The position numbers and the translations under genes are program-made. A stretch of 64,000 nucleotides of DNA. It comes from Phycisphaerales bacterium. Its GTDB lineage: Bacteria; Planctomycetota; Phycisphaerae; Phycisphaerales; UBA1924. The stretch lies in the NCBI GenBank assembly GCA_040221175.1, contig JAVJVK010000007.1, positions 62,001-126,000 of the forward strand, given 5' to 3'. This document shows positions 55,628-63,264 of the stretch, piece after piece. Below the pieces are notes generated by a model. That model had not been told where the DNA came from. It made no database searches and saw only the letters and a program-made list of their open reading frames with translations. Position 1 is the stretch's first letter, and every line of letters starts with the position of its first letter.

Positions 55628-55686
55628 CGACTATTTCTCAGCCAATCAGGCTCAAGTCGCCCCCTCACACGTTCGATAACCGGGGC

Positions 55687-56832
55687 ATGGCACCCCAGAA
55701 CAGCAACCCGGCCGTCGCCCAGGCCCAAAGCCAGGGCGAAAACCAGACCGCACCGAGCCCCACCAGCAGCGGACGCCAGCCATTCAGGCTCTCGGCGCTG
55801 CACCCGCGCGCGGGCAAGGCCTCGTCGGCCGGCATCGCCCCCAACCTCATGGGCGAGATGGCCGGCCTGTTCGAGGGCAGCCTCACCAGCGGGTACGGGC
55901 CACAGATCGGCATGGTGCCCACCGCCAAGCCCAAGACCGAAGAGCCCTCCACCAAGCCCGCCAGGCCCGCGATCAAGCGCCGGTCCAAGGCCTCAACCGA
56001 AGCCAAGCCGAAGCCCGCCCCGCGCCGCATGACCGCCGAGGAGGCACGGGCCTTCCTCATGGGCTCGGAGGCGCCCGCCGGCCCCAATGCCGAGCCCCGC
56101 CCGATGCGCACGCCGCCCATCCCCAAGAGCATCCGCGACCTGCGCCTGGCGGGCTTCACCAGCGTCTACGAACTGCTGCCCGAAGAGCCACGTCTGTTCG
56201 CCCTCGAGTCGGTCTACGGCCGCTGGGACGGCAAGATCCTCGTGCTGGATTCAGCCCCGACCCACGTCCAGGTGGTCAAGGCCCGCCTGGCACGCCGAAC
56301 CCTGCGCCCTTACTGCCAGCACGAGACCCCGGCGACCTACGGCCTGGCACGCCTTGCATTCCCGTTGGCCAGCCGAGGCGTCCTGGCGGGCACTTGCTAC
56401 GGCCCGCTGCTGGTTAACGACAACGGCCGCGATGAACTGAAGCGCAGCCGCGACGAGCACCGCAAGGCGGTCGCGCCCATGTTGCGCCACGTCATCAAGA
56501 GCATGCCAAACGTGAAGGCCATCGTCTGCCTGGGCGTCACCGCCTACGACTTCGTGCTCCATGCCATGACCAGCAAGGCACCAAGGCCGGGAGCCTTGCC
56601 CCGCTGGCCCCAGGAGTTCGATGCGGCCGAGCCCGTGCGCCCGATCTTCGGTGGGCCCACCGTCTTCCTCACTTGCCGCACCTCGCCCGACGCCATCCAC
56701 CGTCGCGGCGGCGAGACCAGGGCCCAGCAGGACTGGCAGGCCGTCGCCGACCACCTGGCACACCAAGAGAAGCCTCGCGCCCTTAAGAGCATCGGGCGCT
56801 CCAAGGTGACCGTGCCCAACCACGCCGCCTGA
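55687..56832 (+). CDS. Uracil-DNA-glycosylase-superfamily-like protein with disordered N-terminus
   Basis: The 381-residue protein has a low-complexity, Pro/Ser/Lys-rich N-terminal 140 residues and a C-terminal domain resembling the UDG superfamily. In that domain DEHRKAVAPMLRHVIKSMPN and KAIVCLGVTAYDFVLHAM match the helix-strand pair of family 4/5 UDGs, and VFLTCRTSPDAIHRRGGETR corresponds to the HPS-type motif region, with Ser-Pro present but His replaced. The active-site GEAPG motif is not evident (ILVLDSAPTHVQ is its nearest match). It could be a repair glycosylase or an inactive relative. Start ATG 55687 is supported by GATAAC six bases upstream. Confidence 0.45.
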   Translation: MAPQNSNPAVAQAQSQGENQTAPSPTSSGRQPFRLSALHPRAGKASSAGIAPNLMGEMAGLFEGSLTSGYGPQIGMVPTAKPKTEEPSTKPARPAIKRRSKASTEAKPKPAPRRMTAEEARAFLMGSEAPAGPNAEPRPMRTPPIPKSIRDLRLAGFTSVYELLPEEPRLFALESVYGRWDGKILVLDSAPTHVQVVKARLARRTLRPYCQHETPATYGLARLAFPLASRGVLAGTCYGPLLVNDNGRDELKRSRDEHRKAVAPMLRHVIKSMPNVKAIVCLGVTAYDFVLHAMTSKAPRPGALPRWPQEFDAAEPVRPIFGGPTVFLTCRTSPDAIHRRGGETRAQQDWQAVADHLAHQEKPRALKSIGRSKVTVPNHAA

Positions 56833-57361: not shown

Positions 57362-58225
57362 CTACTCCCCCACCCGCCGCGTCACGCTCACCGCCGGATA
57401 CAGCCCCGCCACCTTCTCCCGCGGCTCCACGCGCGCCTTGTGCCGGGGATTCAGCGGCTGCAGCCGGATCAGTTCTTCGCCCCCTTCGCCGCGCTCGAAG
57501 TACACGCGCTTGAACGTGGTCTCGCTGTCCGGCTCGGCAAGCCGCGCGAAGCAGTCCATCCCGTCTCGCACCTCGCGGCCGGGGCTGAAGATTACCACGT
57601 CGCCCTCGAGATACGTGGGCTCCATGCTGTCGCCGGTGATGCGGGCCGCGAAGGCGTCCGGGTCGCCCAACTCGGGCGCCGCCACGTAGCTGTCGGCTAC
57701 GCGGGCCGGGTAGCCCAGGTCGGTGAACTCGGCCGCCTGTCCCGCCGGCACAAGATTAATCAGCGGCACCGCCCGGGGTAGCAACGCCTCGACCGTCTCG
57801 CCCTCGCCCGGCGTGCCCGCCTGCGGCGCAATCCGCTCCACCAGCCGAGCCAGCACGCCCGACTCGAACGCACGATCGAGCCCGCCCGGCCCCGCCGAAC
57901 GGAGCATCGCCGCCAGTTGCCGCGCAGCGTGGCCCTGCTCGCGCCGCTCGGCCAGCTCCTCGCGCACGGCCGCCGGCGTGCTCTGCATCGCCACCATCTC
58001 ACCCAGCGAGCCCGGCTCCATCTCCAGGGCTCGCTCCAAGCCAGACAGCACACGCTCGGTCGGCGCCCCCCGCTTGCCGCGCTCCAGCAGCGAGAGATAT
58101 CCCTTGGTGCACCCCGCCCGCTCGGCCGTCTCGCGCAAACTCAGGCCGAGCCGCAGCCGCCGATCCCGCAGACGATCGCCGAACCCGCTCGCCAACGGCC
58201 ACTCGCTGCATCGATCCACCGGCAT
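57362..58225 (-). CDS. XRE/S24-type (LexA/CI-like) repressor
   Basis: The 287-residue protein has an N-terminal XRE HTH (GLSLRETAERAGCTKGYLSL) and a C-terminal S24 self-cleavage domain: ARITGDSMEPTYLEGDVVIF with the catalytic serine at residue 200, and TTFKRVYFE with the catalytic lysine at residue 239. This architecture is that of phage CI and SOS-responsive repressors, which autocleave after RecA-ssDNA signalling. ATG 58225 follows GGAAGGGG. It is divergent from the HTH/ABC/GNAT/terminase cassette, so it is the likely switch for that cassette. An operator (TTGCAA-TTGT-TTGCAA) lies between them. Confidence 0.88.
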   Translation of the reverse strand: MPVDRCSEWPLASGFGDRLRDRRLRLGLSLRETAERAGCTKGYLSLLERGKRGAPTERVLSGLERALEMEPGSLGEMVAMQSTPAAVREELAERREQGHAARQLAAMLRSAGPGGLDRAFESGVLARLVERIAPQAGTPGEGETVEALLPRAVPLINLVPAGQAAEFTDLGYPARVADSYVAAPELGDPDAFAARITGDSMEPTYLEGDVVIFSPGREVRDGMDCFARLAEPDSETTFKRVYFERGEGGEELIRLQPLNPRHKARVEPREKVAGLYPAVSVTRRVGE

Positions 58226-58326
58226 GCTCGGCCCCTTCCGTGAGCCGCCTCAGAGCATCGAGAGCGGCTATCTGCTCCATATCGCCACCCAACTGCGCAA
58301 TCTGGTGGGGATACCAAACATTAGCC

Positions 58327-58355
58327 TTGCAATTGTTTGCAATCCAGTCGACAAT
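58327..58355 (+). promoter_or_regulatory. Cassette promoter with overlapping repressor operator
   Basis: TTGCAATTGTTTGCAA (58327-58342) contains two TTGCAA palindromes 10 bp apart. The first is also a -35 followed, after 17 bp, by GACAAT (58350-58355). The S24 repressor at 57362 is the likely binder. A GGAGAG ribosome site precedes ATG 58397. Confidence 0.6.
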
Positions 58356-58396
58356 AGGGCGTCAGACCAAAGCATGCAGTAAACGGAGAGCACGCC

Positions 58397-58834
58397 ATGC
58401 AGACAAGACTGGACGATGCGGCCCTGGACATGCGACGCAAGCAGCGGCGGGCTCTCGTGACGCGCGTCCTTGACGCGGCAGACCATCTGCCCCCCGAAGA
58501 ACGCCAGCTGCTCATCGCCATTTATGGCCGCGGCATGGCCGTCAGCGAGGCCGCCGTCATGCTGGGAACCCCCGAGCGCCAGCTTCGCCGCCGCGTCCGG
58601 GCCCTGGTCCGTCGCGTGTGCGACCCGACCTTCGACGCCGCCGTCCGGCTGAGCCCGGACATGCCCCGCCAGCTCCGCCAGGTCGCCCGCCTGAAGGCCA
58701 TTGAGGGCCTGCCCATGCGGCAGATCGCCCAAAGGCTGGGCGTGAGCTACCACACCGTGCGCAAGCACTACGACGCATTCCGAGCCCTGATCGAGGCCGC
58801 GGGCTCGCGCTCCAAGCCAGGGAGCGCCGCGTGA
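58397..58834 (+). CDS. Double-HTH protein, possible terminase small subunit or sigma-like activator
   Basis: The 145-residue protein has two HTH-like regions: GRGMAVSEAAVMLGTPERQL followed by RRRVRALVRRV, and KAIEGLPMRQIAQRLGVSYH followed by TVRKHYDAFRALI. The second resembles sigma-70 region 4/LuxR-type HTH. Its position just before an ATPase, GNAT and terminase large subunit fits a small-terminase or cassette regulator. It is the first gene of the operon and overlaps the next by GTGA. A Pro/Gly-free short C-terminus follows. The function is inferred from position only. Confidence 0.6.
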   Translation: MQTRLDDAALDMRRKQRRALVTRVLDAADHLPPEERQLLIAIYGRGMAVSEAAVMLGTPERQLRRRVRALVRRVCDPTFDAAVRLSPDMPRQLRQVARLKAIEGLPMRQIAQRLGVSYHTVRKHYDAFRALIEAAGSRSKPGSAA

Positions 58835-59529
58835 ACGACCGCGTCGCCCACGCCCGCGCCTTGTTCGCCCTGCCCGTGGGCTCGGCCGAGCCCTGCCGCC
58901 GCAGCGCCCTGCGCGCCGCCCGCGATGCCGCCCGATCGCTCGCGCAGCTCGAGCCCGGCCAGGTCGCCCTGCTCACCGGCCCCAGCGGCAGCGGCAAGAG
59001 CACCGCCATCGCGATGCTCCGCCGCCGCCTTTCGCGCATGGGCCGCGTGGTCGTCCGCCCACCCGCACACCTGTCGCGCCGACGGCCCACCATCGAGCAC
59101 GTGGGCGATGACCTCGACCAGGCACTCGGACTGCTCGGCGCCGCCGGCCTGGCCGAGGCCTCCTTGCTCGTGCGTCCGGCCGGCCGACTGAGCACCGGCC
59201 AGCTCGCGCGGCTGACCATCGCCGCTGCCATGGACCGTTGCACCCCCGGCTGCGTGCTCGTCGTCGACGAGTTCGCCGCCACGCTCGATGCGCCCACCGC
59301 CCACTCGCTGGCCCACGCTTTGGCGCGCTGGTGCCGACGCAAGCGCATCACGCTGGTTGCCTGCAGCGCTCGAGAAGACACGCTCGAAGCGCTCGCGCCC
59401 GACCTGCTCATCGTCCTGCCCCTGCCCGGCGATCGCCCGTCGCCACCCGTCGTCATCACCCGCGCCCCCGCGGAGCCATGCCGTGGCACACGCCTCGCTC
59501 GTCCGCCGATTCCGCGTCCTGCGCACTGA
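58831..59529 (+). CDS. ABC-type ATPase of the COG2401 kind
   Basis: The 232-residue cytoplasmic ATPase has Walker A GPSGSGKST at residues 50-58, a signature-like LSTGQLARLTIAAAM, and Walker B CVLVVDEFAATLD with the DEF-xx-LD form typical of COG2401 (ABC-ATPase fused to acetyltransferase) rather than of transporters. The switch region VACSAREDTLEAL lacks the usual His. No membrane partner is present. It starts at GTG 58831, overlapping the HTH stop, and its end overlaps the GNAT gene by 47 bases, as expected if the two once formed one fused protein. Confidence 0.75.
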   Translation: MNDRVAHARALFALPVGSAEPCRRSALRAARDAARSLAQLEPGQVALLTGPSGSGKSTAIAMLRRRLSRMGRVVVRPPAHLSRRRPTIEHVGDDLDQALGLLGAAGLAEASLLVRPAGRLSTGQLARLTIAAAMDRCTPGCVLVVDEFAATLDAPTAHSLAHALARWCRRKRITLVACSAREDTLEALAPDLLIVLPLPGDRPSPPVVITRAPAEPCRGTRLARPPIPRPAH

Positions 59530-60157
59530 CCCCATCACCATCGAAACGGGCACGTACGACGATCTTCGCGCGCTGTCGCGCTACCACTACGTGGCCGGTC
59601 GGCCCGGGCCCATCACCCGTATCCTGCGCGCGAGCGCCGACGGCGAGACCGTGGGCGTGCTGGCCGCGTCGATGCCGACCCTCAACGGCCGGTGGCGAAG
59701 CATCGCCTGGCCGGGCGACTACGACACGCCCGACAAGCGCGCCAACGCCCTGCGCCTCAACCACGACGTCCGCGTGATCTCGCGCGTCATCGTCGACCCG
59801 CGTTACCGCGGCCGCGGCGTCGCGGTCCGGCTCGTGCGCGCGTACCTGGACGCCCCGTGCACCGAGCGCACCGAAGCCCTGGCCGCCATGGCCCACGCGT
59901 GCCCCTTCTTCGAGCGAGCCGGCATGGAGCGCATCGACCTGCCGCTGAGCAAGGCCGACGCCAAGCTGCTGCGCGCGATGGCACGCCACGGCGTCGAGCC
60001 GGCCGACCTGCTCGCGAGCCTGCCCGCGGCGATCACCCCGAGCCTGCGCGCGTGGGCGCGGGCCCGCAAGCTCCGCGGCGGCGACATCGCCGCGCGGGCA
60101 TTTGCGCTGCTCACCCACCCACCCGTCGCCCACGTGCACGAACGGAGCCAGTCGTGA
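59483..60157 (+). CDS. GNAT-fold protein, COG2401 acetyltransferase-domain type
   Basis: The 224-residue protein has LSRYHYVAGRPGP near the N-terminus, the CoA-loop region RVIVDPRYRGRGVAVRLV near residue 95 and AHACPFFERAGMERIDLP. These match, from memory, the acetyltransferase half of COG2401 fusion proteins (RYHYxxGxP...PRYRGxG...PFFExAGM), which is also the layout discussed for phage Mom-type DNA-modifying acyltransferases. GTG 59483 is the only in-frame start close to the domain; it overlaps the ATPase by 47 bases. The acceptor is unknown; DNA, tRNA or protein are possible. Confidence 0.65.
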   Translation: MAHASLVRRFRVLRTDPITIETGTYDDLRALSRYHYVAGRPGPITRILRASADGETVGVLAASMPTLNGRWRSIAWPGDYDTPDKRANALRLNHDVRVISRVIVDPRYRGRGVAVRLVRAYLDAPCTERTEALAAMAHACPFFERAGMERIDLPLSKADAKLLRAMARHGVEPADLLASLPAAITPSLRAWARARKLRGGDIAARAFALLTHPPVAHVHERSQS

Positions 60158-61602
60158 CGCCGCTGCCGGCACGGCCGGCGACCGTCGACGAACTGGCCCA
60201 GTGCGTGGGCACGATGCTGGACGTGCAAGTGAGCGCCAAGCCCTTGGCGTACCTGGCCCATGCGTTCTTTGCCGACCACATGCCCGACGCGCTCGGCAAC
60301 ACCGCCGACGACCCGATCGACGCGGTCGTGTGGGCCAACCGCGGGGGCGGCAAGACGTTCCTGGGCGCCGTGGCGACGCTGCTGGACCTGGTGTACAAGC
60401 CGGGCATCGAGGTGCGCATCCTGGGCGGCTCGCTCGAGCAGGCCCAGCGCATGCACGCGCACCTGCGGCATCTCATCCGGTGCCCGGCCGTCAGCGAGCT
60501 GGTCGAGGGCCGCGTCACCGATCGACGGCTTGAGCTGATCAACGGATCGAGGCTCGAGTTGCTCGCCCAGAGCCAGGCATCGGTCCGCGGCACGCGCATC
60601 CAGAAGCTGCGCTGCGACGAGGTCGAGCTCTTCGACCCGGCCGTGTGGGAAGCCGCCCAGCTCACCACGCGCAGCAAGACCGTGGAATACGAGGGCAAGC
60701 CATACACCATCCGCGGCTCGATCGAGGCCCTGAGCACCATGCACCGCGCCCACGGGCTGATGCGGGACGTTGTGGACCAAGCCAACGAGGGCACGCGGCA
60801 CCTGTTCAAGTGGGGCGTGGTCGACGTGCTCGAGCGCTGCGACGATCGCTACACGTGCGAGGGGTGTCCACTGTTCACAGAGTGCCAGGGCTCGGCGAAG
60901 GATGCGAATCGGGTGCCGGGCCACCTGTCCATCGCCGACGCGGTCTCGCTGAAGGGGCGGGTTTCGCTGTCAACATGGGACGCGGAGATGCGGTGCGAGC
61001 GGCCCAAGAGCGACGACGCGGTGCTGCCCGAGTTCGATCGGGCCGTGCACGTGCGCCAGATGCCGAACATCGACGAAGACTGGCAATGGGTCCTGGGCAT
61101 GGACTTCGGGTATCGCTCGCCGACGGTGATCGTGTGGGGCGCGCTCAGCCCCGAGGGGGTGTTGCGCGTTGTTCGTGAGCGCGTGGCGTCACGGTGTCTG
61201 CTCAATGAGCACATCGACGCGATGCTGGAGAACGAGAGCCAGAAGCCGAGCTGGATCGGCATCGACCCGGCCGGCTGGCAGGGCAACGCGCAGACCGGCC
61301 TGAGCGACGCCCAGCAGATCCAACGCGCCGGCCTGACCGTGCGCGCCCGCCGCACGACCATCCGGGCCGGGCTCGACCTGCTGCGCGCTCGATTGCGGCC
61401 TGCCAATGGTGAGCCGACGCTGTTCATCTCTCCCGACTGTCCGCACCTGATCGAGAGCCTGGAGCGCTACCACTACGACATGCAGCGCCCCATGAGCGAG
61501 GAGCCGGCCAAGGACGGGCCCGACCACGCCGTCGATGCGCTGCGGTACCTGGTGACGAATCTCGATCGGCCGGGGGCGCTGAAGGCGGGGAGTTACTTGT
61601 GA
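60154..61602 (+). CDS. Phage-type terminase large subunit (TerL) with cysteine cluster
   Basis: The 482-residue protein has an ATPase half (AVVWANRGGGKTFLGAV, P-loop near residues 61-68; KLRCDEVELFD as Walker B) and a nuclease half with WVLGMDFGYRSPTVIVWG and GPDHAVDALRYLV, the usual TerL acidic residues. In phages it packages DNA into heads. Cysteines 229, 235, 238 and 244 (C-x5-C-x2-C-x5-C, CEGCPLFTEC region) suggest a metal or Fe-S site between the halves. It overlaps the GNAT gene by GTGA. No portal, capsid or tail gene follows; the next gene is convergent, so this is an orphan terminase. Confidence 0.85.
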   Translation: MTPLPARPATVDELAQCVGTMLDVQVSAKPLAYLAHAFFADHMPDALGNTADDPIDAVVWANRGGGKTFLGAVATLLDLVYKPGIEVRILGGSLEQAQRMHAHLRHLIRCPAVSELVEGRVTDRRLELINGSRLELLAQSQASVRGTRIQKLRCDEVELFDPAVWEAAQLTTRSKTVEYEGKPYTIRGSIEALSTMHRAHGLMRDVVDQANEGTRHLFKWGVVDVLERCDDRYTCEGCPLFTECQGSAKDANRVPGHLSIADAVSLKGRVSLSTWDAEMRCERPKSDDAVLPEFDRAVHVRQMPNIDEDWQWVLGMDFGYRSPTVIVWGALSPEGVLRVVRERVASRCLLNEHIDAMLENESQKPSWIGIDPAGWQGNAQTGLSDAQQIQRAGLTVRARRTTIRAGLDLLRARLRPANGEPTLFISPDCPHLIESLERYHYDMQRPMSEEPAKDGPDHAVDALRYLVTNLDRPGALKAGSYL

Positions 61603-62941: not shown

Positions 62942-62994
62942 GGTGGGCGATGGTATCGGCGGGCGGGCCGGGGGTGTTTCGGGGGTGCGGGGAT

Positions 62995-63183
62995 GGTTCC
63001 GGGCGCGCCCTGGGAGGCTTGGGCCGCGCCCCGAAAGGTTCCGGGCGCGCCCTGAGAGGCTTGGGCCGCGCCCCGAAAGGTTCCGGGCGCGCCCTGAGAG
63101 GCTTGGGCCGCGCCCCGAAGGGTTCCGGGCGCGCCCTGGGAGGCTTGGGCTGCGCCCTGAGCGGTTCAGGCCGTGGCCCGCGG
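62995..63183. repeat. 21-bp tandem array F (nine units, 42-bp superperiod)
   Basis: Nine 21-bp units alternate between two forms, GGTTCCGGGCGCGCCCTGA and GGCTTGGGCCGCGCCCCGA (each plus two further bases), giving a 42-bp superrepeat. Three copies of the pair are nearly identical, the best preserved repeat of the set. It lies in the divergent gap between the two-helix gene (start 62941) and the lipoprotein (start 63276). Confidence 0.9.
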
Positions 63184-63264
63184 GGTGTGCGCGGCGGCGC
63201 ACGCGGGCTTCCCGGGGGCGATGCGCAGTTCCTGCGCATCCGGTGGGGGCGGGGCGGGGGCGGC

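What the first reader, a model, noticed from the sequence alone, without database searches (positions are those of the whole stretch)
57362..61602. Repressor/HTH/ABC-ATPase/GNAT/terminase cassette: candidate undescribed system
An S24 CI-like repressor is divergent from four genes whose start and stop codons overlap: a double-HTH protein, a COG2401-like ABC ATPase, a COG2401-like GNAT protein and an orphan terminase large subunit. There are no head, portal, tail or integrase genes. The ATPase and GNAT pair is the split form of a fused family thought to modify nucleic acid or protein, and a TerL that cuts and translocates DNA follows. This could be a self-contained defence, DNA-modification or DNA-transfer module, or a decayed prophage. 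The S24 domain implies release by DNA damage.
Basis: partly seen in the sequence, partly recalled or inferred. Interest (0 to 1): 0.75.

Follow-up and report, generated by a model that had tools for sequence, protein, structure and literature searches.

The report
Capsid-less phage terminase operon in Phycisphaerae
A set of genes that viruses use to mark, cut and pump DNA into their shells has been kept by a whole class of planctomycete bacteria (Phycisphaerae) as an ordinary single-copy chromosomal operon, next to a repressor built to switch off upon DNA damage and with no linked virus-shell genes, so it probably does an unknown DNA-handling job for the cell.

Summary
All five genes are present as described: a divergent S24 repressor, then HTH, ABC ATPase, GNAT and TerL with overlapping ends. 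It is not a decaying prophage. The same cassette was found in every one of 41 loci read from the order. A TerL ortholog occurs in 152 of 298 genomes sampled from the class, almost always as one copy. Outside the class only weak or partial terminase matches appear. The TerL tree follows taxonomy family by family, so inheritance is vertical. ATPase and nuclease residues and a four-Cys cluster are invariant in 72 of 72 class TerLs. The repressor keeps the Ala-Gly cleavage site and the Ser/Lys dyad. Across the class the operon is HTH-ABC-GNAT-ParB-TerS-TerL; the window's genus has lost ParB and TerS. Nickie-like phages and rare Phycisphaerae prophages carry the same order followed by portal and capsid, so the origin is a phage packaging module. 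The portal and capsid families searched were absent from the window's genus; other head families were not tested. Best reading: an ancient domesticated, SOS-controlled packaging-initiation module that marks and cuts or translocates DNA without linked capsid genes. The activity is inferred. A gene transfer agent with unlinked, untested heads remains the main rival.

The parts
57362..58225 (-). S24 (LexA/CI-type) repressor, HTH + autoprotease; Ala161-Gly162, Ser200 and Lys239 invariant in relatives
58311..58355 (+). promoter/operator region: -35 TTGCAA (58327-58332), 17-bp spacer, -10 GACAAT (58350-58355), palindrome-like GTTTGC-N6-GTCGAC (58335-58352)
   Evidence: footprint over 7 genus members; 18-bp palindrome GTTCAC-N6-GTGAAC enriched in order-level loci; full 30-mer found once in own genome
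58397..58834 (+). double sigma-70-region-4-type HTH protein (putative activator or DNA-recognition subunit)
58831..59529 (+). small ABC ATPase; Walker A, LSxGQ signature and Walker B (DE) conserved
59483..60157 (+). GNAT acyltransferase partner (in one open frame with the ABC domain in several relatives); likely GTG start at 59483
60154..61602 (+). terminase large subunit: ATPase + RNase H-like nuclease + four-Cys motif, all catalytic residues kept

Best explanation
This is a phage DNA-packaging initiation module domesticated by an ancestor of the class Phycisphaerae and kept since as a single-copy chromosomal operon: repressor <-> HTH - ABC - GNAT - (ParB - TerS) - TerL, without linked portal, capsid or tail genes. 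Shown: gene content and order, vertical inheritance, intact active sites, derivation from a phage packaging locus, conserved self-cleavage residues of the repressor. Inferred: (1) DNA damage activates RecA, the repressor cleaves itself and leaves a palindromic operator over the operon's promoter; (2) the HTH protein and, where kept, ParB and TerS choose the DNA; (3) the ABC-GNAT pair acylates DNA (or a DNA-bound protein) in an ATP-gated way; (4) TerL cuts and/or translocates that DNA. With no linked shell, the likeliest use is handling of the cell's own or invading DNA during the SOS response (site-directed cutting, end processing or movement) rather than filling virions.
For: Whole cassette in 41/41 order-level loci, repressor not found in six, and in class-level families f9, f11, f13, f14, f15, f18, f20, f23. 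TerL ortholog in 152/298 class genomes, one copy in nearly all; outside the class only weak or partial matches. TerL tree: 24 labels need 23 changes, the minimum; families f4, f5, f6, f11, f13, f15, f18, f24 each one clade. Walker A Lys/Thr, Walker B Asp-Glu, nuclease D317, D371, D457, D461 and four Cys invariant in 72/72. dN/dS about 0.07-0.16 for the closest pair. Repressor A-G site, Ser, Lys invariant in 21; REP and TerL distances correlate, r=0.91. Palindrome with >=10/12 matches in 18 of 42 intergenic regions against 1.8% of shuffles. Phages RHph_X66, nickie and RHEph10 show ParB-ABC-GNAT-TerL-portal; prophage-like loci L186, L188, L189 show the module followed by portal and capsid. Chromosomal genes (rpiB, sulfatase) lie inside the operon in some families. 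No PF04860 or PF05065 match in 7/7 genus members; no phrog_145 portal in them, while the same search rings in G104, G113, G161, G217. Literature predicts DNA base acylation for ABC+GNAT (PMC7824862).
Against: No biochemical or expression data. Head proteins evolve fast, and only five portal/capsid families were tested, so unlinked head genes could be missed. One family of the order (f2) almost entirely lacks TerL, and about half of sampled class genomes showed no match, so it is not essential. In f20, f23 and f24 some TerLs stand away from the other genes. dS is near saturation, so dN/dS values are rough. The operator motif was picked from the same sequences on which it was counted. An SOS link is deduced from residues, not observed.
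Confidence: 0.6

Rival explanations
1. Gene transfer agent (GTA): the operon is the packaging part of a class-wide GTA whose shell genes lie unlinked and belong to families not recognised here. SOS induction would package chromosomal fragments for transfer or repair.
For: Vertically kept, catalytically intact TerL with phage-derived partners is what a GTA needs. Closest relatives sit in prophage-like loci with portal and capsid. A GTA that promotes DNA repair and survival is known in Caulobacter (PMC9632790, abstract listed).
Against: No PF04860 or PF05065 match in the 7 genus members; no phrog_145, PF20036 or phrog_247 match in them or in complete relatives. The 30-bp operator occurs once in the genome, so no second operon shares it closely. 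TerS and ParB were lost in the window's genus.
Confidence: 0.22
2. Chromosomal anti-phage or anti-plasmid system: the repressor is released by damage or phage signals, GNAT-ABC marks self DNA, and TerL attacks unmarked DNA or jams packaging of incoming phages.
For: ABC+GNAT is predicted to modify DNA bases (PMC7824862); TerL has an intact nuclease; the ABC protein shares its ATPase core with PADLOC models such as mad3 at 5e-14.
Against: The PADLOC similarity covers about 84 residues of generic ABC signature/Walker B. Vertical single-copy inheritance over a class is unlike the usual patchy spread of defence genes. TerL is not a known restriction nuclease.
Confidence: 0.12
3. Decayed prophage remnant without function.
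For: Phage-derived genes; ParB and TerS erode along the lineage to the window; single in-frame stops in a few members.
Against: Catalytic residues invariant in 72/72, purifying selection, tree matches taxonomy, regulator kept with TerL at r=0.91.
Confidence: 0.04

Closest known systems
Packaging locus of nickie-like and RHEph10-like phages (Nickievirus, Rhizobium phages RHEph10 and RHph_X66)
   Same: ParB, ABC ATPase, GNAT and TerL in the same order and strand as each other, with ABC-GNAT-TerL as in the window
   Different: Phages carry ParB before the ABC gene and a portal gene right after TerL with a full virion gene set; here there is an S24 repressor, an HTH gene and no linked portal; the TerLs are far apart (separate clade)
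Phycisphaerae prophage-like loci L186, L188, L189
   Same: Closest relatives of the TerL, same four-Cys motif, same module
   Different: Followed by portal (phrog_145) and major capsid genes; sporadic; sister clade, not orthologs
Gene transfer agents such as RcGTA and CcGTA
   Same: Domesticated phage packaging machinery kept vertically in chromosomes
   Different: GTAs keep head and tail genes, mostly in one cluster; none found here in the families searched
ABC ATPase + GNAT predicted DNA-base acylation system (Iyer et al. 2013 as cited in PMC7824862; Tenacibaculum phage pT24)
   Same: Same two domains; pT24 was itself a hit of the window's ABC protein
   Different: Function only predicted; here chromosomal, with a terminase and an SOS-type repressor
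Phage Mu Mom (GNAT-fold DNA modification enzyme)
   Same: GNAT fold; Mom (8bv8) among the matches of the model, TM 0.44
   Different: Many other GNATs score alike; no sequence match of the GNAT profile to a solved structure

Membership tests
Tailed-phage terminase large subunit | P-loop ATPase with Walker A and Walker B | tested here: met
   ANRGGGKT and CDE; K67, T68, D155, E156 invariant in 72/72
Tailed-phage terminase large subunit | RNase H-like nuclease with acidic triad | tested here: met
   D317, D371, D457/D461 invariant; align with D6E terminase
Tailed-phage terminase large subunit | Works with a portal to fill a capsid | tested here: inconclusive
   No linked portal in the window or class-type loci; phrog_145 and PF04860 absent from genus genomes; other portal families not tested
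LexA/CI (S24) SOS repressor | HTH plus S24 domain with Ala-Gly site and Ser/Lys dyad | tested here: met
   A161-G162, S200, K239 invariant in 21; Pfam HTH_31 and S24
LexA/CI (S24) SOS repressor | RecA-dependent self-cleavage and induction | not testable with these tools
   needs experiment
ABC-GNAT DNA modification system (Iyer 2013 prediction) | ABC ATPase adjacent or fused to GNAT | tested here: met
   adjacent in window; same open frame in L051, L054, L061, L063, L068, L071
ABC-GNAT DNA modification system (Iyer 2013 prediction) | acylated base in DNA | not testable with these tools
   needs mass spectrometry
Gene transfer agent | vertically kept, host-regulated packaging genes | tested here: met
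   vertical descent and intact residues; regulation inferred from the repressor
Gene transfer agent | head and tail genes | tested here: inconclusive
   five portal/capsid families absent from the genus; others not tested
Prophage (complete or decayed) | integrase and structural genes, or broken frames | tested here: not met
   none around the window's cassette; frames intact in nearly all relatives
Known anti-phage system (PADLOC) | component set of a catalogued system | tested here: not met
   only partial single-domain matches, e.g. mad3, mad8, mad1, capH

The most novel reading that the evidence does not exclude
A terminase has been turned, at the root of a bacterial class, into a capsid-free cellular DNA motor/nuclease that is switched on by DNA damage and works with a base-acylating ABC-GNAT pair: a new kind of SOS-controlled chromosome-processing machine with no known counterpart.
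Probability: 0.4. Interest if true: 0.9.

Novelty: new variant of a known kind. Interest (0 to 1): 0.74.

Why it matters
TerL is treated as a hallmark of tailed viruses, and an isolated TerL in a genome is usually read as prophage debris. Here it is an ancient, single-copy, catalytically intact chromosomal gene of a whole bacterial class, in a regulated operon. If it works without capsids it would be a new cellular use of a viral DNA motor; if a hidden shell exists it would be a new GTA lineage in Planctomycetota. Both are testable in cultured Phycisphaerae. It also warns virus-finding pipelines that this TerL does not mark a virus, and it offers a genetic handle on the uncharacterised ABC-GNAT DNA-modification prediction.

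Tried and rejected
(1) Decayed prophage: rejected by class-wide conservation, tree and active sites. (2) Known defence system: PADLOC gave only generic ABC/HTH-domain matches. (3) Unlinked capsid or portal genes: PF04860, PF05065, phrog_145, PF20036 and phrog_247 gave nothing in the genus; the first phrog_145 run lacked a positive control, so it was repeated with known carriers; PF20036 itself was not rerun on carriers, but phrog_247, which covers the same capsids, was. (4) A regulon sharing the operator: the 30-mer occurs once; a looser 21-mer gave only further sites with 2-3 mismatches, which I could not separate from chance. (5) Viral contigs: single-sequence queries found almost nothing; the profile found 9 distant or partial ones. 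(6) Literature: COG2401, GTA + Phycisphaerae and domesticated terminase + Planctomycetes gave no paper on this; the 2013 Iyer paper is not held. (8) One search was a mistaken call without a model id; one search was this report in a wrong format.

Full report
Observation. HTH/ABC and GNAT/TerL overlap by GTGA; ABC and GNAT overlap by 47 nt. Profile searches confirm S24 + HTH, two sigma-70 region-4 HTHs, ABC ATPase, GNAT and terminase. The AlphaFold model of TerL (pLDDT 91) matches complete terminases (D6E, T4 gp17, HK97) over both domains, and its nuclease part aligns with D6E TerL including the acidic residues.

Conservation in the order. The ABC protein matches 92 of 101 relatives, 7 of 7 in the genus, though the weakest matches are general ABC ATPases. 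In 41 loci taken around good hits in the own genome and 40 relatives, the divergent repressor, HTH, ABC, GNAT and TerL recur in this order; a repressor was not found in six of them, two loci on short contigs are cut inside the cassette, and L073 has its GNAT before the HTH. Flanking genes are kept only within the genus (e.g. the ORF at 55684-56832 in four genus members) and differ beyond it, so the cassette itself is the conserved unit.

Distribution in the class and phylum. A TerL profile (A1) finds orthologs in 152 of 298 Phycisphaerae genomes, nearly always as one copy (some are split over two pieces), at about 450-757 bits for full-length members of the vertical type. In a phylum sample, matches outside the class reach at most 214 bits and most cover only the nuclease domain. 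Named carriers are mostly Phycisphaerales MAGs, plus complete genomes such as Planctomycetales bacterium ZRK34. A TerL tree of 81 sequences needs 23 label changes for 24 groups, the minimum, and most families form single well-supported clades. This is vertical inheritance. The tree was a quick search, and the two other-class sequences in it are long branches whose position is unsure.

Ancestral content and erosion. In families f4, f5 and f6 and in many class-level genomes two genes lie between GNAT and TerL: a ParB-N protein (Pfam 2e-9 for L174) and a small protein that I read as TerS from its position and look; no library named the latter, so the TerS label is an inference. In the window's family ParB has shrunk to a small product homologous to its C-terminal tail; in the window's genus both are gone and TerL abuts GNAT. 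In f18 and f20 rpiB lies inside the operon, and in one f23 genome a sulfatase does, which marks it as chromosomal.

Phage origin. Phages RHph_X66, nickie and RHEph10 carry ParB-ABC-GNAT-TerL-portal in one strand and order; Jace has ParB next to a fused ABC-GNAT gene with a terminase small subunit nearby. Three Phycisphaerae loci (L186, L188, L189) carry the module followed by head genes: portal in L186 and L188, major capsid in all three; their TerLs form a sister clade to the vertical family. So the operon derives from a phage packaging locus whose shell genes are no longer linked in the vertical lineage.

Selection. In 72 class TerLs Walker A Lys/Thr, Walker B Asp-Glu, nuclease D317, D371, D457, D461 and the four Cys are invariant. 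dN/dS for the closest pair is 0.07-0.16 across the genes; it rises in wider pairs, where dS is near saturation. Pairwise distances of repressor and TerL correlate at 0.91.

Regulation. The repressor keeps the Ala-Gly cleavage site, the Ser nucleophile and the Lys base in all 21 aligned sequences. Upstream of HTH lies TTGCAA-17-GACAAT, conserved in the genus, overlapped by GTTTGC-N6-GTCGAC. In the order the region holds the palindrome GTTCAC-N6-GTGAAC with at least 10 of 12 matches in 18 of 42 intergenic regions, against 1.8% of shuffles (the motif was chosen from the same data). Whether it binds this repressor or LexA is not known. The operator 30-mer occurs once in the genome.

Shell genes. 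PF04860 and PF05065 are absent from all seven genus members and occur in only a few other relatives. phrog_145, the portal of the nearest prophages, is absent from 61 relatives and from the 15 non-prophage genomes of a controlled run, nine of them single-contig assemblies, while the same search rings in four of five prophage-type genomes. PF20036 and phrog_247 capsids are likewise absent. Other head families were not tested, so a GTA with unlinked, unrecognised heads is not excluded.

Function. The literature predicts that the ABC-GNAT pair acylates a DNA base (PMC7824862; the primary 2013 paper is not held). The GNAT model resembles many GNATs, Mu Mom among them, which is compatible but not specific. 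Put together, the most economical reading is an SOS-released module that selects, marks and cuts or moves DNA. Which DNA, and to what end, is open; the capsid-free reading is favoured because no shell genes were found and because TerS and ParB were shed in this lineage while TerL activity residues were not.

Noticed in passing
L186, L188, L189: Prophage-like loci in Phycisphaerae with ABC-GNAT-ParB-TerS-TerL (parts missing in L189) followed by portal (phrog_145 in L186 and L188) and capsid (phrog_1357 or Gp13-like); possible source lineage of the module.
   Followed up: partly
L161:1-12255: IMG/VR contig where a chromosomal-type GNAT-TerL is followed, after a truncated TerL frame, by genes that look like phage replication genes: perhaps a provirus inserted in or beside this TerL gene.
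   Followed up: partly
window 55684-56832: ORF next to the cassette that looks like a uracil-DNA-glycosylase-type protein by eye, with no Pfam match; kept beside the cassette in four genus members.
   Followed up: partly
L170, L171, L172: rpiB (ribose-5-phosphate isomerase B) lies between the GNAT or TerS gene and TerL in families f18 and f20.
   Followed up: partly
family f2 of the order: Nearly all sampled genomes of f2 lack the TerL although neighbouring families have it; only G086 keeps it.
   Followed up: no
window about 62950-63240: Repeated Arg/Pro-rich 'GARPEPLRARP'-like coding repeats, open in several frames on both strands.
   Followed up: no
window 60838-60885 (TerL residues 229-244): Invariant C-x5-C-x2-C-x5-C motif between ATPase and nuclease, shared with the prophage-like relatives but absent from the nickie-like phages; likely a metal site.
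   Followed up: partly
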